From: Spirochaetes bacterium GWB1_27_13
GTDB lineage: Bacteria; Spirochaetota; GWE2-31-10; MWDO01
Direction: 5' to 3'
NCBI GenBank assembly: GCA_001829125.1
Contig: MIAN01000127.1
Location: 1-35,142, forward strand
Length of the DNA: 35,142 nucleotides
Each line of letters begins with the position of its first letter. Position 1 is the stretch's first letter. Shown here one piece after another: positions 722 to 21,451 of this stretch. The notes under the pieces are model-generated. The model was not told where the DNA came from. It did no database searches and saw only the letters and a program-made list of their open reading frames with translations. The position numbers were made by a program, and so were the translations under genes.

Positions 722-3523
722 ATGACAAAAGAAGAAGGCAAAACAATAATTCAACAAAAAGTTATCGAGTTTGGCGAAAAAGAATCATTCTTTATGAAAA
801 AAGGACACGGTGAAACTAACATTAGAAGTAACTTTATAGATATTTTTTTTAAGGCTTTAGGTTGGGATATGGAAAGTTATTTTGATGTTCGTAGGGAGTT
901 TTCACAAAAAGATAATTCTGCCACAAAAAAAGTTGACTATGCCTTTATGTCAAATGGAAAGTTAAAATTTTTTGTTGAAGCTAAAGAGGTTAGCGTTGAT
1001 CTCGAAAATAACAAAGATGCTATTTATCAAGCCAAAAGATACGCCTTTTCTACCAATGGTAAAGCACCTATTGTTATTTTGACTGATTTTCAAGAGTTTA
1101 GGGTGTTTAATGTGCTAAAAGCCCCTCTTTTTGATAATACAGATAGAGAATTATTAAAAAATCATTGTATGCGTTATACTGATTACATAGATAAGTGGGA
1201 TTTGCTTTGGGAAACATTCTCAAAAGAAGCGGTTAGTAATGGGAGTCTAAATAAACTTGTTGGTAAAATTGATAAAAACACAAAGTTAATGGATGTCGAG
1301 TTTTTAGAACAAATTACATCTTGGCGTGAAACTCTGGCAAAACATATTGCATTAAGAAATAAAGACCTAACAGTCGATGAAATAAACGAATCTGTACAAA
1401 GAATCTTAGACCGTCTTATTTTTATTAGAAACCTCGAAGACCGAGAAATCGAAGAAGAAAGCACACTTTTAAAACTTATTAATACCAAAGAAAATATTTA
1501 CAAAAATATTATTCCTCTATTTAATAAACTTGATGATATTTATAATGGTCTTCTTTTTAAAAAACACTTTTCGGAAGCCCTAATTATTGATGACAAAGTT
1601 ATAAAAGACCTAATCAAAAATATCTGTCCCCCAGTTTCTCCATTTCAATTTGATGTTATTGAGCCAGAGATTTTGGGGCGGATTTACGAAAAATTTTTGG
1701 GTAGCAAAATTAGACTCACAGAAGGTCATCAAGTCAAAATTGAAGAAAAAATTGAAGTTAGAAAGGCTGGGGGCGTTTATTACACTCCCGAATACATTGT
1801 TAATTATATTGTCGAAAACACTGTTGGCAAAAAAATCGAAGGACTTACACCAAAAGAAATTGAACAAATAAAAATCCTTGATCCAGCGTGTGGCTCTGGA
1901 AGTTTCTTACTGGGAGCCTATTCCTATTTGTTAAAATATCACGAAAAATTCTATACTGAACACAAAAACGATAAAAAATATAAAGATGATTTTTATATTA
2001 CAAAAGAAGGCGAATTTAAAGTAAAACTCGATAAAAGAGCAGAAATTCTTAAAAATAATATATTTGGCGTAGATATTGACAAAGAAGCAACCGAAGTTGC
2101 TATAATGAGCCTCTATTTAAAAATGCTCGATGAAGGATTTGACAAAGGGCAAAAAGAATTGTTTTTTTTAAAAGGACATATCTTACCTGATATGTCGGGT
2201 AATGTTAAATGTGGTAACTCACTAATCGGTAGTGATTACTTTGACGAAAAACTTGATTTTAACGATGAAGAGTTTAAAAAAATAAATCCTTTTAACTGGA
2301 ATGATGGTTTTAAAGAAGTGTTTAAAAATGGCGGATTTGATGTAGTGATTGGGAATCCACCGTATATTTTGATTCAAGATGTTAATAGAAATGATAATTA
2401 TTTGAATTATTATAGGGAAAAATATTCTTCTTCATCTTATAAAATAGATACATATCATATTTTTATTGAAAAAGGCATTAACTTATTAAAAGATAAAGGT
2501 TTAATTGGGTATATTACTCCAAGTAATTATATGACTAATAATGGGCTTGAAAAATTGAGAGATTTTATATTAAAAAATTCAAAAATAATAAATATAAATG
2601 TCATCAATGGAAACATTTTTATTGATGCCTCAGTAGATACCTGTATATCAATTTTACAGAAATCAAATGAAAATATAAATTCAAAACTTATCTTTTCAAA
2701 CTGGGATGGTAGTAAATTAGAAGGAATACAAGAAAAAATATTTGAACAAGAACGATTTGAGAAAAATGAAAATTATCTTTTTACTTCAACAGAGGAGACA
2801 AAATTAAATATAAATTGTTTTAATTTAGGTGATAATTATTCAGTAAAATTTGGTATGCAATTAAGAGATAGAAAAAAATATTTAGTCGATGTAATAACAA
2901 AGGATCAGAAAGAACTCATTACATCGTACCATAAAGAATGTTATACGGGTAAAGATGTTGGAAGATATTATATGGGTTATAGTAATTTATTAGCTTATGT
3001 TAATAGAGAAGCACAAAGTGGCGGATGTTGGGATGAAAAGGTACATTTAACTAATCCAAAAATTATAGTAAGACAAATTGGAAAAACTCCTATCTGTTGT
3101 TTAGATGAAAATGGCTATTATTGTTTAAATACTGTTTTTATGATTATTCCAAAAAATGAAAATCAACTTTCTATAAAGTTTATTTTGGGTATTATAAATT
3201 CTTCATTTATTCAAAAATATTGGACAACAAATTTTTATGATATGCGTCAAACTTTTCCAAAAATTAAAGGTTCTTATTTAGAAAAACTCCCCATCCCCTC
3301 TCTCGACCTAACCAACAAAGAACACAAACAAGCCCACGATACCCTTGTTACATTAGTTGAAAATATGCTCCAAACCCAAAAAGACCAAAGAAACGCCAAA
3401 AGCGAACAAGATAAAAACCTTTTTCAACAAAAAATAACAATGCTTGACAAAAAAATAGATAATTTGGTGTATAAACTATATAATTTAACTGAGGACGAAA
3501 TAAAAATCATCGAAGGTAATTAA
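722..3523 (+). CDS. Type IIG (Eco57I-like) restriction endonuclease-methyltransferase
   Basis: A 933-residue single-chain restriction-modification enzyme. The N-terminus carries a PD-(D/E)XK nuclease signature: D72 in KKVDYAF followed by E86-A-K88 in FFVEAK. A helical linker leads to an adenine-N6 methyltransferase core with AGGVYYTP (about 349-356), the SAM-binding LDPACGSGSF (386-395) and catalytic NPPY (545-548). The following part (about 550-850) is the target-recognition region and ends in KLPIPSL. The C-terminal coiled tail (DKKIDNLVYKLYNLTEDEI) is typical of the family and is partly copied in the downstream repeats. Codon use shifts: the flanks use many C-ending codons, while about 2354-3280 is strongly A/T-ending, suggesting that the recognition domain was swapped. 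The start ATG follows AAAGG. The DNA site it recognises cannot be read from the sequence. Confidence 0.9.
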   Translation: MTKEEGKTIIQQKVIEFGEKESFFMKKGHGETNIRSNFIDIFFKALGWDMESYFDVRREFSQKDNSATKKVDYAFMSNGKLKFFVEAKEVSVDLENNKDAIYQAKRYAFSTNGKAPIVILTDFQEFRVFNVLKAPLFDNTDRELLKNHCMRYTDYIDKWDLLWETFSKEAVSNGSLNKLVGKIDKNTKLMDVEFLEQITSWRETLAKHIALRNKDLTVDEINESVQRILDRLIFIRNLEDREIEEESTLLKLINTKENIYKNIIPLFNKLDDIYNGLLFKKHFSEALIIDDKVIKDLIKNICPPVSPFQFDVIEPEILGRIYEKFLGSKIRLTEGHQVKIEEKIEVRKAGGVYYTPEYIVNYIVENTVGKKIEGLTPKEIEQIKILDPACGSGSFLLGAYSYLLKYHEKFYTEHKNDKKYKDDFYITKEGEFKVKLDKRAEILKNNIFGVDIDKEATEVAIMSLYLKMLDEGFDKGQKELFFLKGHILPDMSGNVKCGNSLIGSDYFDEKLDFNDEEFKKINPFNWNDGFKEVFKNGGFDVVIGNPPYILIQDVNRNDNYLNYYREKYSSSSYKIDTYHIFIEKGINLLKDKGLIGYITPSNYMTNNGLEKLRDFILKNSKIININVINGNIFIDASVDTCISILQKSNENINSKLIFSNWDGSKLEGIQEKIFEQERFEKNENYLFTSTEETKLNINCFNLGDNYSVKFGMQLRDRKKYLVDVITKDQKELITSYHKECYTGKDVGRYYMGYSNLLAYVNREAQSGGCWDEKVHLTNPKIIVRQIGKTPICCLDENGYYCLNTVFMIIPKNENQLSIKFILGIINSSFIQKYWTTNFYDMRQTFPKIKGSYLEKLPIPSLDLTNKEHKQAHDTLVTLVENMLQTQKDQRNAKSEQDKNLFQQKITMLDKKIDNLVYKLYNLTEDEIKIIEGN

Positions 3524-3570
3524 AGCGGGGTTAAGGGGCTGCTGCCCCTTAGTCCTTACGACCAGTAAAA
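3395..3570 (+). repeat. Cassette-boundary repeat R1 (full-length reference copy)
   Basis: R1 spans the end of the type IIG gene (3395-3523) and the 47 bp after its stop. The stop is followed by a hairpin, GGGTTAAGGGGC - TGCT - GCCCCTTAGTCC: twelve pairs, with one G.U and one U.G wobble if transcribed. After it comes TTACGACCAGTAAAA. The block recurs five more times downstream in the same orientation (R2-R6). R1 and R5 also share AAAGTTRTTGAA just after the common edge. The reading frame past the TAA stays open for 14 codons (SGVKGLLPLSPYDQ, then stop); this is recorded only as an observation. Confidence 0.9.
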
Positions 3571-3625
3571 AAAGTTGTTGAAAATACTCAAAAATAGTAT
3601 TATTTTATAGATGTGGGGGGTCAAA

Positions 3626-3859
3626 ATGCTTGCTTATGAATATTACACCGAAATTATGTCGGATGGACATTTGAGTATTCCTGATGACATAAAAATAAAA
3701 ATAGAAAATTCAAAAAAAATTAAAGTTGTTGTTATGATTGATGAAACTGAAAAAACTAAGAATAAAAAATTAAGCGATATTCTTCTAAATTCTCCTTTAA
3801 GAGACTCTGGGATTGATTTAGAAAGAAAAGATGATTTTGGAAGAGATATTGAGTTATGA
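3626..3859 (+). CDS. Antitoxin-like protein upstream of the broken PIN toxin (cassette 1)
   Basis: A 77-residue protein whose start region (MLAYEYYTEIMSDGHLSIPDDI) resembles the swapped-hairpin AbrB/MazE/VapB antitoxin fold, with 'GHLSIPDDI' in the usual strand-turn-strand position. The C-terminal half (KKLSDILLNSPLRDSGIDLERKDDFGRDIEL) is the expected acidic toxin-binding tail. An ATG exists at 3611, but the GGGGGG at about 3615-3620 sits correctly for the ATG at 3626, so that start is preferred. Its stop overlaps the PIN toxin ATG at 3856 (ATGA), as in vapBC. It is the first gene of cassette 1, between R1 and R2. Because the toxin behind it is interrupted, it may now be an orphan antitoxin. 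Confidence 0.7.
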   Translation: MLAYEYYTEIMSDGHLSIPDDIKIKIENSKKIKVVVMIDETEKTKNKKLSDILLNSPLRDSGIDLERKDDFGRDIEL

Positions 3860-3913
3860 AATATCTTGTTGATACTTGTGTTATATCAGAGTTTACTAAA
3901 AAGAATCCAGATA

Positions 3914-4043
3914 TATACTTAAACGCTTCTAAAAGGTCAATAAATAATAGAATTGACATTGCTTGTAACTTATTTGATACAGATGAATTAATAGAGATAA
4001 GCGTTTAAGGTATATATTGACAATTTGGACAATTGTCAATATA
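3914..4043 (+). mobile_element. MITE-like element, copy A, inserted in the cassette-1 PIN gene
   Basis: A 101-bp body (3914-4014) has terminal inverted repeats: left TATACTTAAACGCTT, and right reading TATACCTTAAACGCTT on the other strand. It is followed by a 27-bp palindrome (4015-4041: TATTGACAATT - TGGAC - AATTGTCAATA). ATATA flanks the insert at 3911-3915 and 4039-4043 as a target duplication, and removing one duplication plus the insert repairs the PIN gene. The body is nearly identical to 21322-21422. It has no transposase and is too short to code for one, so it must be mobilised in trans if it is mobile. Confidence 0.8.
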
Positions 4044-4045
4044 AA
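4017..4045 (+). promoter_or_regulatory. Outward-facing promoter-like pair in element A
   Basis: TTGACA at 4017-4022 and TATAAA at 4040-4045 are separated by exactly 17 bp. The -35 lies in the left arm of the element's palindrome, and the -10 straddles the junction with the host gene. It points into the 3' part of the broken PIN gene and on towards cassette 2. Confidence 0.5.
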
Positions 4046-4433
4046 AGTTATAAATTTTCTCAATTCTGTTAATCAATTTGATTTGTATTTAAGTGTTTTA
4101 TCAATTGGAGAAATAAAAAAAGGAATTGCGAAGATAAATGATTTAAAAAAACAAAAAGATTTGAATTTGTGGTTGAATGATGTTTTGTTAGCAAATTACA
4201 GAGACAATTTATTAGATATTAATTTTCAAGTAATTAGTAAATGGGGTGAATTGGTTGGATTATATGAAAAAAAAGGAATTATTTTACCAATAATAGATAG
4301 TTTATTAATTTCAACGAGTATTTGTTATAATATGATTTTTGTTACAAGAAATGTTAAAGATATAAAAATTTTAGAATGTAATTATTTAAATCCTTGGGAA
4401 TAATTATTATTATATGCTTTTATTCAAAAAACA

Positions 4434-4609
4434 GCCAAAAGCGAACAAGATAAAAACCTTTTTCAACAAAAAATAACTCTACTTGACAAAAAAATAGACA
4501 ATTTGGTCTATAAACTGTATAATTTAACTGATGATGAAATAAAAGTTATTGAGGGTAATTAAAGCGGGGTTAAGGGGCTGCTGCCCCTTAGTCCTTACGA
4601 CCAGTAAAA
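4434..4609 (+). repeat. Cassette-boundary repeat R2
   Basis: Aligns with R1 over its full 176 bp without gaps. It retains the codons of a type IIG C-terminus ending in NLTDDEIKVIEGN, then stop, hairpin and the ACGACCAGTAAAA edge. It differs from R1 at many wobble positions and several first or second positions (for example TCTACTTGAC for ATGCTTGAC), so it derives from a different type IIG gene and is not a recent copy of the upstream one. Beyond the edge it continues with GACACAGGAGG, the ribosome site of the next gene; R3 and R4 share a similar extension. Confidence 0.9.
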
Positions 4610-4624
4610 GACACAGGAGGAAAA

Positions 4625-5071
4625 GTGAAAAAATTAAAAGTTTATTTAGATAATTGTTGTTTTAATAGACCTTATGATGACCAGAGTAATATTACAATTA
4701 AAATTGAGACAGAAGCAAAATTAGATATTCAAAATAAAATTAAAAGAGGTGTTCTTGATTTAGTTTGGTCTTACATTCTTGATTTTGAGAATTACAAAAA
4801 TCCTTTGATTGAAAGAAAAATAGAAATAAGTAAGTGGCGAGCGTTATCTATTGATATTGTTGTTGAAAATGATAAAATTTTATCAAAAATGAAGGAAATA
4901 ATAAAATTTGGAATAAAACCACTTGATTCTCTACATCTTAGTTGTGCTATATACTCAAAATGTGATTATTTTTTGACAGTAGATAGAGGTATTTTAAATA
5001 AAACTAAAAAAATCAATGAAATTGAGATATTAAATCCAATTGATGTATTATATAAATTGAAGGAGTTATAA
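4625..5071 (+). CDS. PIN-domain toxin (cassette 2)
   Basis: A 148-residue PIN-domain protein. Likely metal ligands are D9 in VYLDNCC, an acidic residue in the LDFENY block (about 53-55), D101 in KPLDSLHLSCA and D120 in FLTVDRGIL. The GTG start is set by AGGAGG at 4615-4620, which belongs to the extended repeat. A small gene starts one base after its stop, probably the antitoxin; that order is toxin first, the reverse of vapBC at the window start. The first codons (MKKLKVYLD) closely match the cassette-3 toxin (MKKLKIYLD), so similarity between the two cassettes runs from the repeat into the start of the gene. Probable ribonuclease; target unknown. Confidence 0.85.
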   Translation: MKKLKVYLDNCCFNRPYDDQSNITIKIETEAKLDIQNKIKRGVLDLVWSYILDFENYKNPLIERKIEISKWRALSIDIVVENDKILSKMKEIIKFGIKPLDSLHLSCAIYSKCDYFLTVDRGILNKTKKINEIEILNPIDVLYKLKEL

Positions 5072-5072
5072 A

Positions 5073-5276
5073 ATGAGTGATACAGAAATTAAAATTAAGG
5101 GGTTTGAGATATTAAGTAAATATTTAGGTATGGTTGAAATGGAAAAATTTATTTCTATTATTCAGAATGAAAAATTTGATTATACAGAATGGAGACAAAA
5201 CCTTTTTAATGGTATGAGTGGTGAAGAAATAAGTAAGATGGCAATGGATTATATAAAAAATATGCCAAAAGCTTAA
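5073..5276 (+). CDS. Small protein paired with the cassette-2 PIN toxin, probable antitoxin
   Basis: A 67-residue, probably all-helical protein starting one base after the PIN toxin stop. It has the composition of a small binding partner: charged helices and an N-terminal SDTEIKIKGFEILSKYLG stretch. It ends in MSGEEISKMAMDYIKN, comparable to the MSTEQIFSYIHN end of the small gene after the cassette-3 toxin. That shared 'MSxEx(I)...I' ending after two related PIN genes is the main reason to call both antitoxins. No DNA-binding motif is evident. I do not recognise a named family. Confidence 0.65.
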   Translation: MSDTEIKIKGFEILSKYLGMVEMEKFISIIQNEKFDYTEWRQNLFNGMSGEEISKMAMDYIKNMPKA

Positions 5277-5292
5277 ATCCAAAAAAGATGTA

Positions 5293-5403
5293 AATTTGGT
5301 CTATAAACTATATAATTTAACTGAGGATGAAATAAAAATCATCGAAGGTATTTAAAGCGGGGTTAAGGGGCGGATAGCCCCTTAGTCCTTACGACCAGTA
5401 AAA
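5293..5403 (+). repeat. Cassette-boundary repeat R3 (variant hairpin loop)
   Basis: A 111-bp copy that begins part-way through the type IIG tail (AATTTGGTCTATAAAC) and runs to the common 3' edge. The hairpin stem AAGGGGC/GCCCCTT is unchanged, but the loop is GGATA instead of TGCT, one base longer: the stem is conserved while the loop drifts. The tail ends GGTATTTAAAGCGGGG. It continues with GACACAAGGGGG, a relative of the R2 and R4 extension that supplies the ribosome site for the next gene. Confidence 0.9.
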
Positions 5404-5419
5404 GACACAAGGGGGAAAA

Positions 5420-5905
5420 GTGAAAAAGTTAAAAATTTATCTTGATACATCAATAATTAGTTTTTTATATGCAGATGATTCACCTGATTATAAAAAAGCT
5501 ACTATTGATTTTTTTGATAATTATTTAGATAAATATGATGTATATATTACTGAATTTGTTATTGCTGAGCTTGATAATACAAAAGATGAAATTCTTAAAG
5601 ATAAATTTAGAATAGCAGTAAAAAAATATAATCTAAAAATACTGAATATCGATGAAGAGAATAAAGAAAGTATAATTCAATTAGCAAAAAAATATATTTC
5701 TAATAAAATCATACCTGAAAGTAAATTTGATGATGCGTTACATATTGCTATCTGTTCTATTTATGATTTTGATATTCTTTTAAGTTGGAATTTTAAGCAT
5801 ATAGCAAATATAAAAAAACAAATACAAATAAACATAATTAATATGCAAGAGAGCTTTTTAAAAGAGCTATATCTTGTAAATCCATTGGAGGTAATTTATG
5901 AATGA
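5420..5905 (+). CDS. PIN-domain toxin (cassette 3)
   Basis: A 161-residue PIN-domain protein. Visible motifs are D9 in IYLDTSIISF, E50 in FVIAELD, D104/D105 in KFDDALHIA, and LSWNFKHIAN. In the last motif Asn-124 stands where many VapC toxins have the fourth Asp; a WN version of this motif is found in a subgroup of PIN toxins, so it is not evidence of inactivation. The GTG start follows AGGGGG at about 5410-5415 in the extended repeat. The 3' end overlaps the next small gene (ATG at 5898 within the last codons), so the pair is translationally coupled, toxin first. Probable ribonuclease, target unknown. Confidence 0.88.
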   Translation: MKKLKIYLDTSIISFLYADDSPDYKKATIDFFDNYLDKYDVYITEFVIAELDNTKDEILKDKFRIAVKKYNLKILNIDEENKESIIQLAKKYISNKIIPESKFDDALHIAICSIYDFDILLSWNFKHIANIKKQIQINIINMQESFLKELYLVNPLEVIYE

Positions 5906-6047
5906 AATTGAAGTCCCAAAAATGTTAGAGGAAGTCTGGAAGATGAAAGACTCTGTTTATAAAGATATAAAAAATATGTCAACCGAACAAATATTTAGTT
6001 ATATTCATAATAAGACAATAGATTTTACAAAAAAAACAAGTAGTTAA
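5898..6047 (+). CDS. Small antitoxin-like protein paired with the cassette-3 PIN toxin
   Basis: A 49-codon gene overlapping the end of the PIN gene by eight bases. The product starts MNEIEVPKMLEEVWKMKDSV and continues YKDIKNMSTEQIFSYIHNKT. This 'E-x-W-x-M-K-D...Y-K-D-x-K-N-M-S-x-E-x-I...Y-I' pattern is what I expect of the short antitoxins that follow this class of PIN toxin. A GGAGGT at about 5887-5892 gives a ribosome site at good distance from 5898. It probably binds the toxin through its helices. It ends 11 bp before R4. Confidence 0.75.
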   Translation: MNEIEVPKMLEEVWKMKDSVYKDIKNMSTEQIFSYIHNKTIDFTKKTSS

Positions 6048-6058
6048 GCATTAAAAAT

Positions 6059-6134
6059 ATGAAATAAAAATCATCGAAGGTAATTAAAGCGGGGTTAAGG
6101 GGCTGCTGCCCCTTAGTCCTTACGACCAGTAAAA
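6059..6134 (+). repeat. Cassette-boundary repeat R4 (shortest copy)
   Basis: A 76-bp copy that keeps only the last few codons of the type IIG tail (ATGAAATAAAAATCATCG...), then the stop, the standard hairpin with TGCT loop and the common 3' edge. It continues with GACACAGGAGAG, which acts as ribosome site for the next gene. Confidence 0.9.
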
Positions 6135-6149
6135 GACACAGGAGAGATA

Positions 6150-6917
6150 ATGTTTTTAATGTATATTGATGAGTCAGGAGATCCTGGTTTATATGTTGAA
6201 GGTAAAAATTCACAGCATTATATTTTATCTGGATTAATATTAAATATGACTGATTGGACAACATATTTAGATAGATTAAAAAAATTTAGAAGATGGTTAG
6301 ACAAAAAATATAAACTATCAACGAGAGAAGAAATTCACGCTTCAGAATTGATTAGAGTAAATAAAATTGAATCTTATAAAAATATTACAAAATCTGATAG
6401 AATTGAAATTTTAAGACTTTATTCTGAAGCAATACCAAAAATATTCAACAAAGCAAAAATTATTAATGTTTGTCTTGATAAAAATGAATTAAAATTGGGA
6501 AATTTCAAAAATTTTTCAGAATATGCGTGGCACAGAGTAATACAAAGATTTGATAGGTTTTTAAGTAAACAAGATAGAGATAAAGGAATTATAATAGCAG
6601 ATGACACTGATGAGCCATTAATAAGAAATTTATTAAGAAGAATGAGATTTTATAATCCCGTTAAATCAAATTATAATGATACATTTTATAATAGTATAGT
6701 AGAAAACATTATAGAAGACCCTTTTTTAAGAAATTCCAAGCATTCATATTTTATACAAACAGTAGATGTATTATCACATTTGCTTTATAGAAAAGAATAC
6801 CCAAAAGGTAGTCTAAAAAAGTTTAATTTACATAAATATTTTTTTAATACAGAATCTATATTATTAAAAGAATCAACTAAAAAAGACAAGGATAATTTAG
6901 GAATTGTTAGAAAATAA
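6150..6917 (+). CDS. DUF3800-family protein (cassette 4)
   Basis: A 255-residue protein of the DUF3800 family, marked by MYIDESGDPG (D7, E8, D11) at the N-terminus. It also has IHASEL (H63), IIIADDTDE (D151, D152) and IQTVDVLSHLLYR (Q203, D206). The family is widely thought to adopt an RNase H-like fold with these acidic residues at the active site, and it is often found in defence and mobile regions. The biochemical role is not established, so a nuclease is an inference. AGGAGAG at 6140-6146 fits the ATG at 6150; the ATG at 6159 is possible. It is the only gene in its cassette, so it probably works alone. An intrinsic terminator-like hairpin follows six bases after the stop. Confidence 0.88.
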   Translation: MFLMYIDESGDPGLYVEGKNSQHYILSGLILNMTDWTTYLDRLKKFRRWLDKKYKLSTREEIHASELIRVNKIESYKNITKSDRIEILRLYSEAIPKIFNKAKIINVCLDKNELKLGNFKNFSEYAWHRVIQRFDRFLSKQDRDKGIIIADDTDEPLIRNLLRRMRFYNPVKSNYNDTFYNSIVENIIEDPFLRNSKHSYFIQTVDVLSHLLYRKEYPKGSLKKFNLHKYFFNTESILLKESTKKDKDNLGIVRK

Positions 6918-6922
6918 AACTA

Positions 6923-6948
6923 CCCCAGTATAAAACTGGGGATTTATT
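6923..6948 (+). terminator. Hairpin after the cassette-4 gene (terminator or IS605-like end)
   Basis: CCCCAGT (6923-6929) pairs perfectly with ACTGGGG (6935-6941) around ATAAA, followed by ATTTATT. It may be a weak intrinsic terminator for the DUF3800 gene. Read on the other strand it is AATCCCCAGT...ACTGGGGTAGTTTT, the general form of the right-end hairpin of IS200/IS605 transposons, so it may be an IS scar. The T-tract is poor for a terminator. Confidence 0.4.
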
Positions 6949-7003
6949 GTGGCCCGGTAATATCATCAAGGATATTATCAAGTCACATATATATAATAAT
7001 ACA

Positions 7004-7023
7004 CCTTGACATATTTGTCAAGG
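7004..7023. other. TTGACA-containing hairpin in the cassette-4 tail
   Basis: CCTTGACA (7004-7011) and TGTCAAGG (7016-7023) form a perfect 8-bp stem with a TATT loop. It resembles the GACAAT...ATTGTC palindromes of the MITE-like family in style but lacks their TGGAC loop, so I do not count it as a member. The preceding stretch (6949-7003) is AT-rich and holds a weaker pair TAATATC/GATATTA. Confidence 0.35.
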
Positions 7024-7036
7024 TTTTAATATCGAG

Positions 7037-7179
7037 CAGAAAAATAACAATCCTTGACAAAAAAATAGATAATTTGGTGTATAAACTATATAATTTAACT
7101 GAAGAAGAAATAAAAATCATCGAGGTATTTAAAGCAGGGTTAAGGGGCTGCTGCCCCTTAGTTCTTACGACCAGTAAAA
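7037..7179 (+). repeat. Cassette-boundary repeat R5
   Basis: A 143-bp copy starting within the type IIG tail (CAGAAAAATAACAATCC) and ending at the common edge. The codons differ from R1 (GAAGAAGAA for GAGGACGAA), and one base is lost near the end (CGAGGTATTT), so the tail frame is broken. It has GCAGGG where R1-R4 have GCGGGG, which it shares with R6. Past the edge it continues AAAGTTATTGAAGG, like R1, giving the ribosome site of the next gene. Confidence 0.9.
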
Positions 7180-7199
7180 AAGTTATTGAAGGATAATTG

Positions 7200-7988
7200 A
7201 TGAAAGAAATATCTGATAAGAAAATGTATTATTTTGTTGATGAATCAGGAGATACTAATTTTTATGGAAAAAATGGTATTGATTTAATAAAACATAATAA
7301 AGCGAGTAAAATATTTATAGTTGGATACTTAGAAACTGAAAATATGAATCAAATTTCTAAAGATATTTACAATCTTAAAACTGAAATAAAAAATGACCAA
7401 TATTTAAAAGGAATTCCATCATTAGAAAAATCATTATTGCATTTTCACGCAAAAGATGATTGTTCAGAAGTTCGACAATTAGTTTTTAAGTCTATTGCTA
7501 AAATGGATTTTAATGCATATATTTTAGTATTTAGAAAAAATGCTGAACATTTTAAAAAGAAATTTAATTGTGAACCTTCTAAGCTTTATGAATATATGAT
7601 AGAAAAACTTTTTGAAAATAGATTACATCTTTACAAAGATATTGATTTATATTTTTCTAAAATGGGTAATATTATAAGAGAGCATAATATGAAAAATGCT
7701 TTAGAAAAAGCCAAGTTTAATTTTAAAAATAAATGGAATAATAAAGAAAGCAGTAATATACGAATATTTATTCAAGAACCATCTCAAATAATGCCTTTAC
7801 AAGTAATAGATTATGTTATTTGGACAATAAATAGAGTTTACGAAAAAAATGATTTAAGATATTATAATTTTATAAAAAATAAAATAAAGTTAATTTATGA
7901 CATAATGGATACAAAGAAATATCCTCATAATTATTACAGTGAGAAAAATCCGCTTGATATAAATAAAATAAGTCCATTAGACAGCTAG
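7200..7988 (+). CDS. Second, divergent DUF3800-family protein (cassette 5)
   Basis: A 262-residue DUF3800-type protein. Key segments are YYFVDESGDTN (D14, E15, D18), HFHAKDD (H81, H83, D86, D87) and PLQVIDYVIWTINRVY (Q200, D203). The order matches the cassette-4 protein, but there is little similarity outside these motifs, so the two were acquired separately. GAAGGA at 7188-7193 suits the ATG at 7200 better than the in-frame TTG at 7197. It is the only gene of its cassette. An RNase H-like nuclease or RNA-binding role in defence is plausible from family context but is not shown by the sequence. Confidence 0.85.
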   Translation: MKEISDKKMYYFVDESGDTNFYGKNGIDLIKHNKASKIFIVGYLETENMNQISKDIYNLKTEIKNDQYLKGIPSLEKSLLHFHAKDDCSEVRQLVFKSIAKMDFNAYILVFRKNAEHFKKKFNCEPSKLYEYMIEKLFENRLHLYKDIDLYFSKMGNIIREHNMKNALEKAKFNFKNKWNNKESSNIRIFIQEPSQIMPLQVIDYVIWTINRVYEKNDLRYYNFIKNKIKLIYDIMDTKKYPHNYYSEKNPLDINKISPLDS

Positions 7989-8105
7989 GTAACTTTCGCT
8001 ACGCAAGGCATGAAGCCTACTTTCACTTATCAAGGACTTAATTAGAATATATATAAAAAACATAAGTTTGTCAAGAACTTGAAAAAAAATTGATAAGTTT
8101 GTCAA
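7989..8105. other. Non-coding tail of cassette 5
   Basis: No gene is visible. The first 45 bp are less AT-rich than the surroundings (TTTCGCTACGCAAGGC, GAAGCCTAC). The rest is AT-rich and contains a direct repeat ATAAGTTTGTCAA at about 8062 and 8092, 5 bp before R6 begins. The origin of the GC-richer part is unknown. Confidence 0.4.
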
Positions 8106-8203
8106 AAACTATATAATTTAACTGAAGAAGAAATAAAAATAATCAAAGGTATTTAAAGCAGGGTTAAGGGGCTGCTGCCCCTTAGTCCTTACGACCAGTA
8201 AAA
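8106..8203 (+). repeat. Cassette-boundary repeat R6 (end of the array)
   Basis: A 98-bp copy with the tail codons of the R5 type (GAAGAAGAA, GCAGGG), the standard hairpin and the common 3' edge, then GAATGTAAAG. No cassette follows: the convergent 2-isopropylmalate synthase-family gene ends 30 bp downstream, so R6 closes the array at the boundary with core genome. Confidence 0.9.
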
Positions 8204-8232: not shown

Positions 8233-9759
8233 TTATTTATTTTTTAAAATTATATTATTTATCAATTTAACAGTTGCTTCAATTGCAGCCATTATTTGAT
8301 CACAATGAACCCCATGAGTTACAATTTTTTTCTCTTCATCTTCAAATTCCCATGAAATCGTAGCTTGTACTAAAGCGTCGGTTTTTCCACCAGGTGGGAT
8401 AGTTACCATATAATCTGCAAGTTTTGGCATTTTTATTTTAAATTTTACTAAAATTTGCTTTAAAGCATTCATAAAAGCATCGTAACCACCGTCTCCATAA
8501 TCATAAGCATCAATTGTTTCGTCATTATAAGAACATTTAATTGCCGCAAATGGTTTTAACTGGTATGTTGTATTAATTACACAATTTAATAATTTAAAAG
8601 GCATTTCATTTTGCATCTCAAAAATATCAGTAATTAAATATGGCAAATCTTCCATAGTAATAGTCTTTTTTTTATCTCCAAGATCAACTATTTTACTAAG
8701 TAGAATCTTTTTTTTGTCATCATCAAGTTCAATACCAAGTTTTTTTAGATTAATCTCAAGATTTGCTTTACCAGAAAGCTTTCCAAGTGCATATTCTCTT
8801 GTTCTTCCAAATCTTTCTGGTATTAATGGATTTGCATACAAGTTACCTTTTTTGTCTCCATCAGCATGAATTCCAGCAGTCTGGATAAAAACATTGCCTC
8901 CAAAAATAGGTTTATTATTCGCCATTCTTTGTCCTGAGAATGTTTCAATAATTTTTGATATTCGATAAAGAGTTTTTTCATCTACATTAGTCTTTATTCC
9001 CAAAAAGTCTTTTAAACCAATAGCAACTTCATCCAAAGAAGCGTTTCCTGCTCGTTCACCTAACCCATTTACAGTGACATGAACTCCTTTAATGCCAGCT
9101 TTGGCAGCAGCTAAAATATTGGCAACTCCAAGCCCATAGTCGTTGTGTGGATGAAAATCAAAGTGTATAGAAGGATATTTTTCTACCAATTTGGAAATAT
9201 ATTCGTAAGTATCAAACGGATTGAGCATTCCTAATGTATCTGGAAGCATTATTCTTTTAACAGACATTGTTTGTAAGAAATTTATCAAATTATAAACATA
9301 ATCGGGTGAATTCTTTATTCCGTTTGAAAAGTCTTCAAGATAAACATTTACTTCAACGTTATTTTTTATAGCATAATTTATAGTTTCTCTTATGTCATTA
9401 ATATGCTCTTCTGGAGTTTTTTTGAGTTGTTCAACACAGTGTTTTAGTGAACCTTTTGATAATAAATTTATTCTTTTTATGCCAACAGATTTTGCCCAGT
9501 CAACAGAAACTGTTTTGTCAACAAAAGTAAGTATTTCAAGTCTATTTATAAAGCCAGCATGTTCTGCCCATTTCGTAATTTTTGAAACGGCTTCTTTTTC
9601 GCCTGCTGATGCTTTTGCTGATGTAATTTCAAGTCTATCAACTTTAACTTCTGTTAATAATATTTGAGCAATAGAAAGTTTTTCTTCTGGTGCATAAGAA
9701 ACACCTTGCATCTGCTCTCCGTCCCTTAAAGTTGTATCCATTATTTCTATACTTTTCAT
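8233..9759 (-). CDS. 2-Isopropylmalate synthase / (R)-citramalate synthase family enzyme
   Basis: A 508-residue enzyme of the LeuA/CimA group, which condenses acetyl-CoA with a 2-oxoacid at the start of leucine or citramalate-route isoleucine synthesis. The TIM barrel starts with IMDTTLRDGEQ (R12, D13). The divalent-metal ligands are D13 and HPHND (H203, H205), with N239 in the GLGERAGNASLDEV block. The C-terminal part from about 370 (LPYLITDIF onwards) corresponds to the regulatory/dimer region. The sequence (SYAPEEKLSIAQILL, VDRLEITSAKASAGE) belongs to the lineage seen in Bacteroidetes-like LeuA, not the E. coli type, so substrate choice between 2-oxoisovalerate and pyruvate is open. No leuCDB genes are adjacent. 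GAGG precedes the ATG. It stands alone, divergent from tatT. Confidence 0.85.
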   Translation of the reverse strand: MKSIEIMDTTLRDGEQMQGVSYAPEEKLSIAQILLTEVKVDRLEITSAKASAGEKEAVSKITKWAEHAGFINRLEILTFVDKTVSVDWAKSVGIKRINLLSKGSLKHCVEQLKKTPEEHINDIRETINYAIKNNVEVNVYLEDFSNGIKNSPDYVYNLINFLQTMSVKRIMLPDTLGMLNPFDTYEYISKLVEKYPSIHFDFHPHNDYGLGVANILAAAKAGIKGVHVTVNGLGERAGNASLDEVAIGLKDFLGIKTNVDEKTLYRISKIIETFSGQRMANNKPIFGGNVFIQTAGIHADGDKKGNLYANPLIPERFGRTREYALGKLSGKANLEINLKKLGIELDDDKKKILLSKIVDLGDKKKTITMEDLPYLITDIFEMQNEMPFKLLNCVINTTYQLKPFAAIKCSYNDETIDAYDYGDGGYDAFMNALKQILVKFKIKMPKLADYMVTIPPGGKTDALVQATISWEFEDEEKKIVTHGVHCDQIMAAIEATVKLINNIILKNK

Positions 9760-16542: not shown

Positions 16543-16600
16543 CCTTTTTATATTGGATTCAATTTTTATTTTTCGCAACTAACCACAAGAGAATATAATC

Positions 16601-16725
16601 TATAATGACAATCGTCCAGATTGTCATTATATACCTGAAATGTTTTTTTACAACTTGTTTGTTTAAAAGAACTTAGGAAAAAATTTATCGTTGAGTTTAA
16701 GACAAACCTGAAACATTTCAGTATA
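16601..16725. repeat. MITE-like element, copy B, in the metG leader
   Basis: A palindrome TATAATGACAAT - CGTCCAG - ATTGTCATTATA (16601-16631) adjoins a 96-bp body (16630-16725). The body has terminal inverted repeats TATACCTGAAATGTTT and, on the other strand, TATACTGAAATGTTT. The layout is that of copies A and A' in reverse orientation: TATA-ended repeats plus one outer GACAAT palindrome with TGGAC in its loop. The interior is unrelated. The right end lies 8 bp before the metG ATG and leaves no clear Shine-Dalgarno. Read leftwards, ATGACA-N17-TATAGA is kept. It may be a regulatory RNA structure or a mobile element; the architecture favours the latter. Confidence 0.55.
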
Positions 16726-16733
16726 TAGTTTTT

Positions 16734-21320: not shown

Positions 21321-21321
21321 A

Positions 21322-21451
21322 TATACCTTAAACGCTTCTAAAAGGTCAATAAATAATAGAATTGACATTGCTTGTAATTATTTGATACAGATGAATTAAT
21401 AGAGATAAGCATTTAAGGTATAGAGACAATTTGGACAATTGCCAGTATAAT
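21322..21451 (+). mobile_element. MITE-like element, copy A'
   Basis: A 101-bp body (21322-21422) is nearly identical to copy A at 3914-4014, with a few substitutions and two compensating one-base indels. The inverted repeats are TATACCTTAAACGCTT and, from the right, TATACCTTAAATGCTT. The outer palindrome is worn (GACAATTTGGACAATTGCC). GAGACA at 21423-21428 and TATAAT at 21446-21451 keep the 17-bp promoter-like spacing, pointing into the 3' end of the convergent hybrid kinase gene. The flanks TTATA and GTATA match at four of five bases, compared with a perfect ATATA in copy A. Confidence 0.75.

What the first reader, a model, noticed from the sequence alone, without database searches (positions are those of the whole stretch)
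3856..4403. PIN toxin gene cut by a small element with a reconstructible empty site
Removing 128 bp (3916-4043) exactly repairs a 139-residue PIN toxin, and ATATA flanks the insert. This is a clean record of a transposition-like event by a 123-bp element without its own transposase. The upstream antitoxin remains intact, so the cassette now has an antitoxin without a working toxin.
Basis: seen in the sequence. Interest (0 to 1): 0.7.

Follow-up and report, generated by a model that had tools for sequence, protein, structure and literature searches.

The report
Toxin gene broken by repeat element
A bacterial toxin-antitoxin gene has been broken by one copy of a small, structured, repeated DNA element present in at least 80 copies across this genome; such gene disruptions are ordinary, but this two-hairpin repeat family appears to be undescribed.

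Summary
The PIN toxin gene 3856-4403 is split by an element at about 3916-4043. Its two pieces (20 and 119 residues) line up end to end, with no residue missing or extra, against intact homologues in two other genomes. The upstream antitoxin is intact and keeps the expected C-terminal tail.

The insert is one of at least 80 full-model copies in the same genome, three of them in this window. A genome of another family in the same order has 7. The element has two parts: a long stem (CTTAAACGCTT...AAGCGTTTAAG), then a second TATA-bounded hairpin that forms the right end.

The 5-bp ATATA duplication is not a general feature. Right-end bases are set by the hairpin, and only ATA is shared throughout. 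TATA-rich targets are preferred.

No DDE_3, DDE_Tnp_1, IS110 or TnpB gene was found. Nine RAYT-like Y1 genes are present, but none carries a confident copy and at least seven have a different REP hairpin nearby. The mobiliser is unknown.

Verdict: an ordinary kind of event caused by an undescribed, modular, BOX/MITE-like repeat family.

The parts
3611..3859 (+). antitoxin gene, 82 aa, intact; stop overlaps toxin start (ATGA)
   Evidence: Open frame; C-terminal tail resembles that of the antitoxin directly upstream of the intact homologue L210; weak NCBIfam RelN antitoxin match, E 0.0024, below cut-off.
3856..3915 (+). N-terminal piece of the interrupted PIN toxin gene (20 codons, holds the first Asp)
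   Evidence: Same 20-residue length and similar sequence as the N-termini of L210 and L211.
3913..4044 (+). inserted repeat element (model extent; the extra sequence relative to intact homologues is about 128 bp)
   Evidence: Best covariance-model match of the genome, 141.1 bits; at least 80 copies.
3918..3928 (+). stem 1, left arm CTTAAACGCTT
   Evidence: 100% complementary to 3999-4009; 5 of 11 pairs show changes on both sides across copies.
3999..4009 (+). stem 1, right arm AAGCGTTTAAG
   Evidence: As above.
4013..4043 (+). right-end hairpin TATATTGACAATT-TGGAC-AATTGTCAATATA; also reads as TTGACA-N17-TATAAA (4017-4045)
   Evidence: 93.9% of cells paired and 3 pairs with changes on both sides; 102 places in the genome within 3 mismatches, reversed control 0.
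4044..4403 (+). C-terminal piece of the PIN toxin gene (119 codons plus stop)
   Evidence: Pfam PIN for the ORF containing it; FitB and VapC structures; lacks the first catalytic Asp.
16600..16726 (-). second copy of the element, subfamily B
   Evidence: 117.5 bits.
21321..21450 (+). third copy of the element, subfamily A
   Evidence: 105.6 bits.

Best explanation
A copy of a high-copy, non-autonomous repeat element moved into a TATA-rich site 20 codons into a FitB/VapC-type PIN toxin gene and inactivated it, leaving the antitoxin intact. The element carries no protein. It has two TATA-bounded structured parts, a long stem-loop and a right-end hairpin, which are probably the recognition unit for a mobilising enzyme acting in trans. 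Shown: interruption, copy number, conserved architecture, compensatory changes in both helices. Inferred: mobility, loss of toxin activity, and action of an enzyme in trans; that enzyme was not found.
For: Pieces abut exactly against intact homologues. 40 scored DNA matches of 207 candidates with sharp ends and unrelated flanks; 102 right hairpins against 0 for the control; at least 80 covariance-model matches, plus 7 in G005. Covariation in both helices exceeds shuffled and slid controls. Reading from the toxin start stops inside the element. A composite copy (L109) shows that elements combine with one another.
Against: No empty site from the same species is held, so the insertion is inferred from distant homologues. 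No mobilising enzyme was found. Whether a target duplication is made could not be settled.
Confidence: 0.88

Rival explanations
1. A classical DDE-transposase MITE (IS630/Tc1-like) with TATACCTTAAACGCTT terminal inverted repeats and a TA-type duplication; the right hairpin is only neighbouring DNA.
For: The arms of stem 1 with TATA on both sides look like terminal inverted repeats; TATA-rich targets; in L109 a B-type stem unit lies between A-type parts.
Against: The right hairpin follows stem 1 in the full copies, with compensatory changes of its own. No IS630-type gene: one sub-threshold DDE_3 match outside any transposase ORF; no DDE_Tnp_1.
Confidence: 0.12
2. The element is moved by a single-strand HUH (Y1) transposase that recognises its hairpins, as in IS200/IS605 derivatives (PATEs) or RAYT/REP systems.
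For: Hairpin ends, no demonstrable target duplication, and Y1 genes are the only transposase-like genes found among five families tested.
Against: The Y1 genes are RAYT-like and at least seven of nine have a GTCTGTCCC-type hairpin nearby; no confident element copy near any of them (best E 0.66). No TnpB. The hairpins abut the ends, leaving no room for the usual guide-to-cleavage-site layout (general knowledge).
Confidence: 0.15
3. The insert is removed from RNA or skipped by ribosomes (intron-like or bypass element), so the toxin is still made.
For: Structured insert in a coding frame; the triplet ATA stands on both sides; the pieces abut exactly.
Against: None of 55 copies has an ORF of 100 codons or more running across it, and those near genes mostly abut gene ends; a bypass or splicing element should be found inside genes. 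No Rfam match.
Confidence: 0.02

Closest known systems
BOX elements of Streptococcus pneumoniae (PMC3049150)
   Same: Small, structured, non-coding, high copy, modular, found inserted in and combined with other repeats; supposed to be moved in trans.
   Different: Unrelated sequence; fixed two-part plan (stem-loop plus right hairpin), not boxA-boxB(n)-boxC; no IS with matching ends found here.
Correia/NEMIS, RUP, ERIC and other MITE-like repeats (PMC10969869, PMC3049150)
   Same: About 100-150 bp, AT-rich sites, mostly intergenic, strong secondary structure, possible outward promoter.
   Different: Their inverted repeats lie at the outer ends; here the right arm is internal and a separate covarying hairpin ends the element.
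PATEs / REP-RAYT systems (IS200/IS605 type; PMC3733652, PMC4853749)
   Same: Hairpins as part of a non-autonomous repeat; Y1 genes exist in this genome.
   Different: The Y1 genes here go with a different hairpin; no GTAG-type tag was seen on the element.
FitB / VapC PIN toxins (PDB 2h1c, 3zvk)
   Same: The C-terminal piece aligns to both (E 1e-4 and 2e-5); antitoxin-toxin order with overlapping ATGA.
   Different: The gene is interrupted here.

Membership tests
MITE (strict definition) | Terminal inverted repeats at the outer ends | tested here: not met
   The right arm of the repeat is internal; a separate hairpin ends the element.
MITE (strict definition) | Target-site duplication | tested here: inconclusive
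   ATA is shared throughout, 4 bp in 36 of 55 and 5 bp in 14 of 55; the right-end bases are set by the hairpin.
MITE (strict definition) | High copy number, no coding capacity, strong fold | tested here: met
   At least 80 copies; z -6.3; the toxin frame stops inside it.
MITE (strict definition) | Parental IS with the same ends | tested here: inconclusive
   None among five transposase families in an 87% complete genome; other families not tested.
BOX-like composite repeat | Modular composition with exchange of modules | tested here: met
   Different stem units with a related right hairpin; hybrid L109. This shows it works like BOX, not that it is homologous to BOX.
BOX-like composite repeat | boxA/boxB/boxC sequences | not tested
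   BOX sequences were not aligned to it; no sequence relation is claimed.
IS200/IS605 derivative (PATE) or REP | Association with a Y1 transposase gene bearing the same hairpins | tested here: not met
   No confident copy in the flanks of nine Y1 genes; other hairpins there.
Type II TA, PIN (VapC/FitB) toxin | PIN domain and a co-encoded antitoxin directly upstream | tested here: met
   Pfam PIN, FitB/VapC structures, overlapping antitoxin gene as at L210.
Type II TA, PIN (VapC/FitB) toxin | One continuous protein with all catalytic acids | tested here: not met
   The first Asp lies in the N-terminal piece only; reading from the toxin start stops inside the element.

The most novel reading that the evidence does not exclude
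A distinct class of non-autonomous mobile element whose two TATA-bounded, covarying hairpins are the substrate of an unrecognised structure-specific transposase, with exchange of stem modules at TATA and an outward promoter carried in the right hairpin.
Probability: 0.2. Interest if true: 0.6.

Novelty: new variant of a known kind. Interest (0 to 1): 0.3.

Why it matters
It turns a single broken toxin gene into a member of a large repeat family with a clear, covariation-supported architecture that can be searched for elsewhere. The lack of any matching transposase makes the question of what moves it concrete. A TA operon with an intact antitoxin and a broken toxin is also a natural loss-of-toxin case.

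Tried and rejected
A 5-bp ATATA duplication as a general feature: rejected, right-end bases follow the hairpin and do not track the left flank. IS630 parent: only a sub-threshold DDE_3 match in no transposase ORF. DDE_Tnp_1, IS110, TnpB: none. RAYT/Y1 as mobiliser: genes present but with a different REP and no confident copy nearby. Rfam family: none. Viral contigs with the junction patterns: none; exact left-end pattern in genome contigs: none. Naming the organism from the LeuA-like gene: ambiguous, probably transferred. Left ends without a standard right end: examined at 20 places; mostly decayed or composite copies, no long element with a transposase recognised, though ORFs there were not scanned with profiles.

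Full report
Observation. The window carries an 82-residue antitoxin gene (3611-3859) whose stop overlaps the start of a PIN toxin (ATGA). The toxin frame runs for 20 codons to 3915, enters foreign sequence and stops inside it. A second open frame (4044-4400) encodes 119 residues. The ORF containing it hits Pfam PIN (E 8.7e-5), and the piece itself hits FitB and a VapC in the PDB and, weakly, a VapC NCBIfam model. Instead both pieces were compared with intact genes: L210 (MKYLLDTCFISELIKKNPNK, then GVTSWL...) and L211 run straight from the residue matching the end of piece one to the residue matching the start of piece two. L210 also has an antitoxin gene just upstream, with the same overlap and a similar C-terminal tail.

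What the insert is. A DNA search of the window's own genome (4.4 Mb, 273 contigs, 87% complete) with the insert gave 40 scored matches out of 207 candidates, 80-96% identical, with sharp ends and unrelated flanks. The right-end hairpin pattern occurs 102 times at three mismatches or fewer, against 0 for the reversed control. A covariance model built from 37 copies scored 80 matches, near the tool's scoring limit of 82, so 80 is a floor; 7 more were found in G005, a genome of another family in the same order. Three copies are in this window.

Architecture. Copies run ATATAC - stem 1 - GG - TATATA - right hairpin - TATAA. Subfamily A has CTTAAACGCTT/AAGCGTTTAAG, B has CTGAAATGTTT/AAACATTTCAG, C has CTTAAAATG/CATTTTAAG; all share a related right hairpin. 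Pair counting gave 89.3% of cells paired (slid controls 33-42%) and 78 cells with changes on both sides (27.6 in shuffles; 10-19 when slid). Stem 1 has 5 and the right hairpin 3 pairs with changes on both sides. Relatedness inflates the shuffle control, but the slid control agrees. L109 combines an A left part, a B stem and an A-type hairpin; some copies are reduced to a minimal palindromic stem plus hairpin (L074, L082, L085). A few right hairpins stand alone (L083, L099, L102, L106).

Ends and target. In 55 good copies the base before ATATAC is T in 40 and A in 14. The right end is TATA in 51, and the base before that TATA (A, G, T or C) is set by pairing within the hairpin and does not track the left flank. 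A four-base match is seen in 36 and a five-base match in 14. The base after TATA is A in 60 of 71. So there is a preference for TATA-rich sites such as (T)TATAA, ATA is shared, and a duplication cannot be told from absence of duplication. Two other copies sit at gene ends, at the end of a HisI-like gene (L010) and between two short genes (L025), again at TATA (the gene naming and the reading of the sites are my inference from sequence).

Mobiliser. Five transposase families were searched in the genome. DDE_Tnp_1, IS110 and TnpB: none. DDE_3: one sub-threshold match, not in a transposase ORF. Y1: nine RAYT-like genes. The Y1 flanks hold no confident copy; the best was a right-hairpin-like match at E 0.66. 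At least seven have GTCTGTCCC-type hairpins nearby. The moving enzyme is therefore unknown; it may be lost, in the missing part of the genome, or of an untested family.

Possible effect on neighbours. The right hairpin contains TTGACA-N17-TATAAA, reading outward (4017-4045; seen directly). The promoter scan did not list it because it requires T at the last position. Among 55 copies the nearest ORF on the right has its start towards the element in 34 and its end towards it in 16; on the left it is 25 against 22. This is a weak hint of promoter function or of retention upstream of genes; ORF calls were crude and no expression data exist.

Comparison. Organisation is most like pneumococcal BOX elements (modular, stem-loops, found inserted in one another; PMC3049150) and other MITE-like repeats (PMC10969869), but outer inverted repeats, part of the strict MITE definition, are not met. 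I found no Rfam family. Breaking genes by such repeats is well known, including a microcystin gene cluster (PMC10969869) and a hydrogenase gene in Thiomargarita (PMC4853749).

Judgement. The event is real and ordinary in kind. The repeat family seems undescribed and is somewhat unusual in architecture, and its mobiliser is open. Limits: no sister strain is held, so neither the age nor the empty site could be checked within the species; the host is an unnamed, fragmented assembly.

Noticed in passing
window 3386-8203: The last 74-185 bp of the type IIG restriction-modification gene (722-3523) plus a GC-rich hairpin tail (ending CGACCAGTAAAA) recurs five more times (ends 4609, 5403, 6134, 7179, 8203; 89-100% identical), once after each of five downstream cassettes: antitoxin+PIN, PIN+small ORF, PIN, DUF3800-like ORF, DUF3800. 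The right joint is constant, the left start varies, and the tail is found nowhere else in the genome. It looks like repeated capture of TA/defence cassettes at the 3' end of one gene.
   Followed up: partly
L085 775-1622 (G000:C48, about 30.8-31.6 kb): A small ORF plus a PIN-like gene lies between two 104-bp direct repeats (95% identical, 744 bp apart) that hold a minimal copy of the element plus the start region of the next gene (GmhA-like), as if a TA cassette had been captured with duplication of the gene start.
   Followed up: partly
G000, nine Y1_Tnp loci (L059-L067): Nine RAYT-like Y1 genes, most with GTCTGTCCC...GGGACAGAC hairpins nearby: a separate REP-RAYT system in the same genome.
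   Followed up: partly
L085, L089, L107 and others: Another dispersed repeat (..ACACGATTTAATCTGTGTCAATCCGTGAAAATC..) often follows directly after D-type right hairpins.
   Followed up: no
window 8233-9759: The 2-isopropylmalate synthase-like gene is closest (62-70%) to Thiomargarita/Beggiatoaceae and some Spirochaetales genomes, suggesting horizontal transfer.
   Followed up: no
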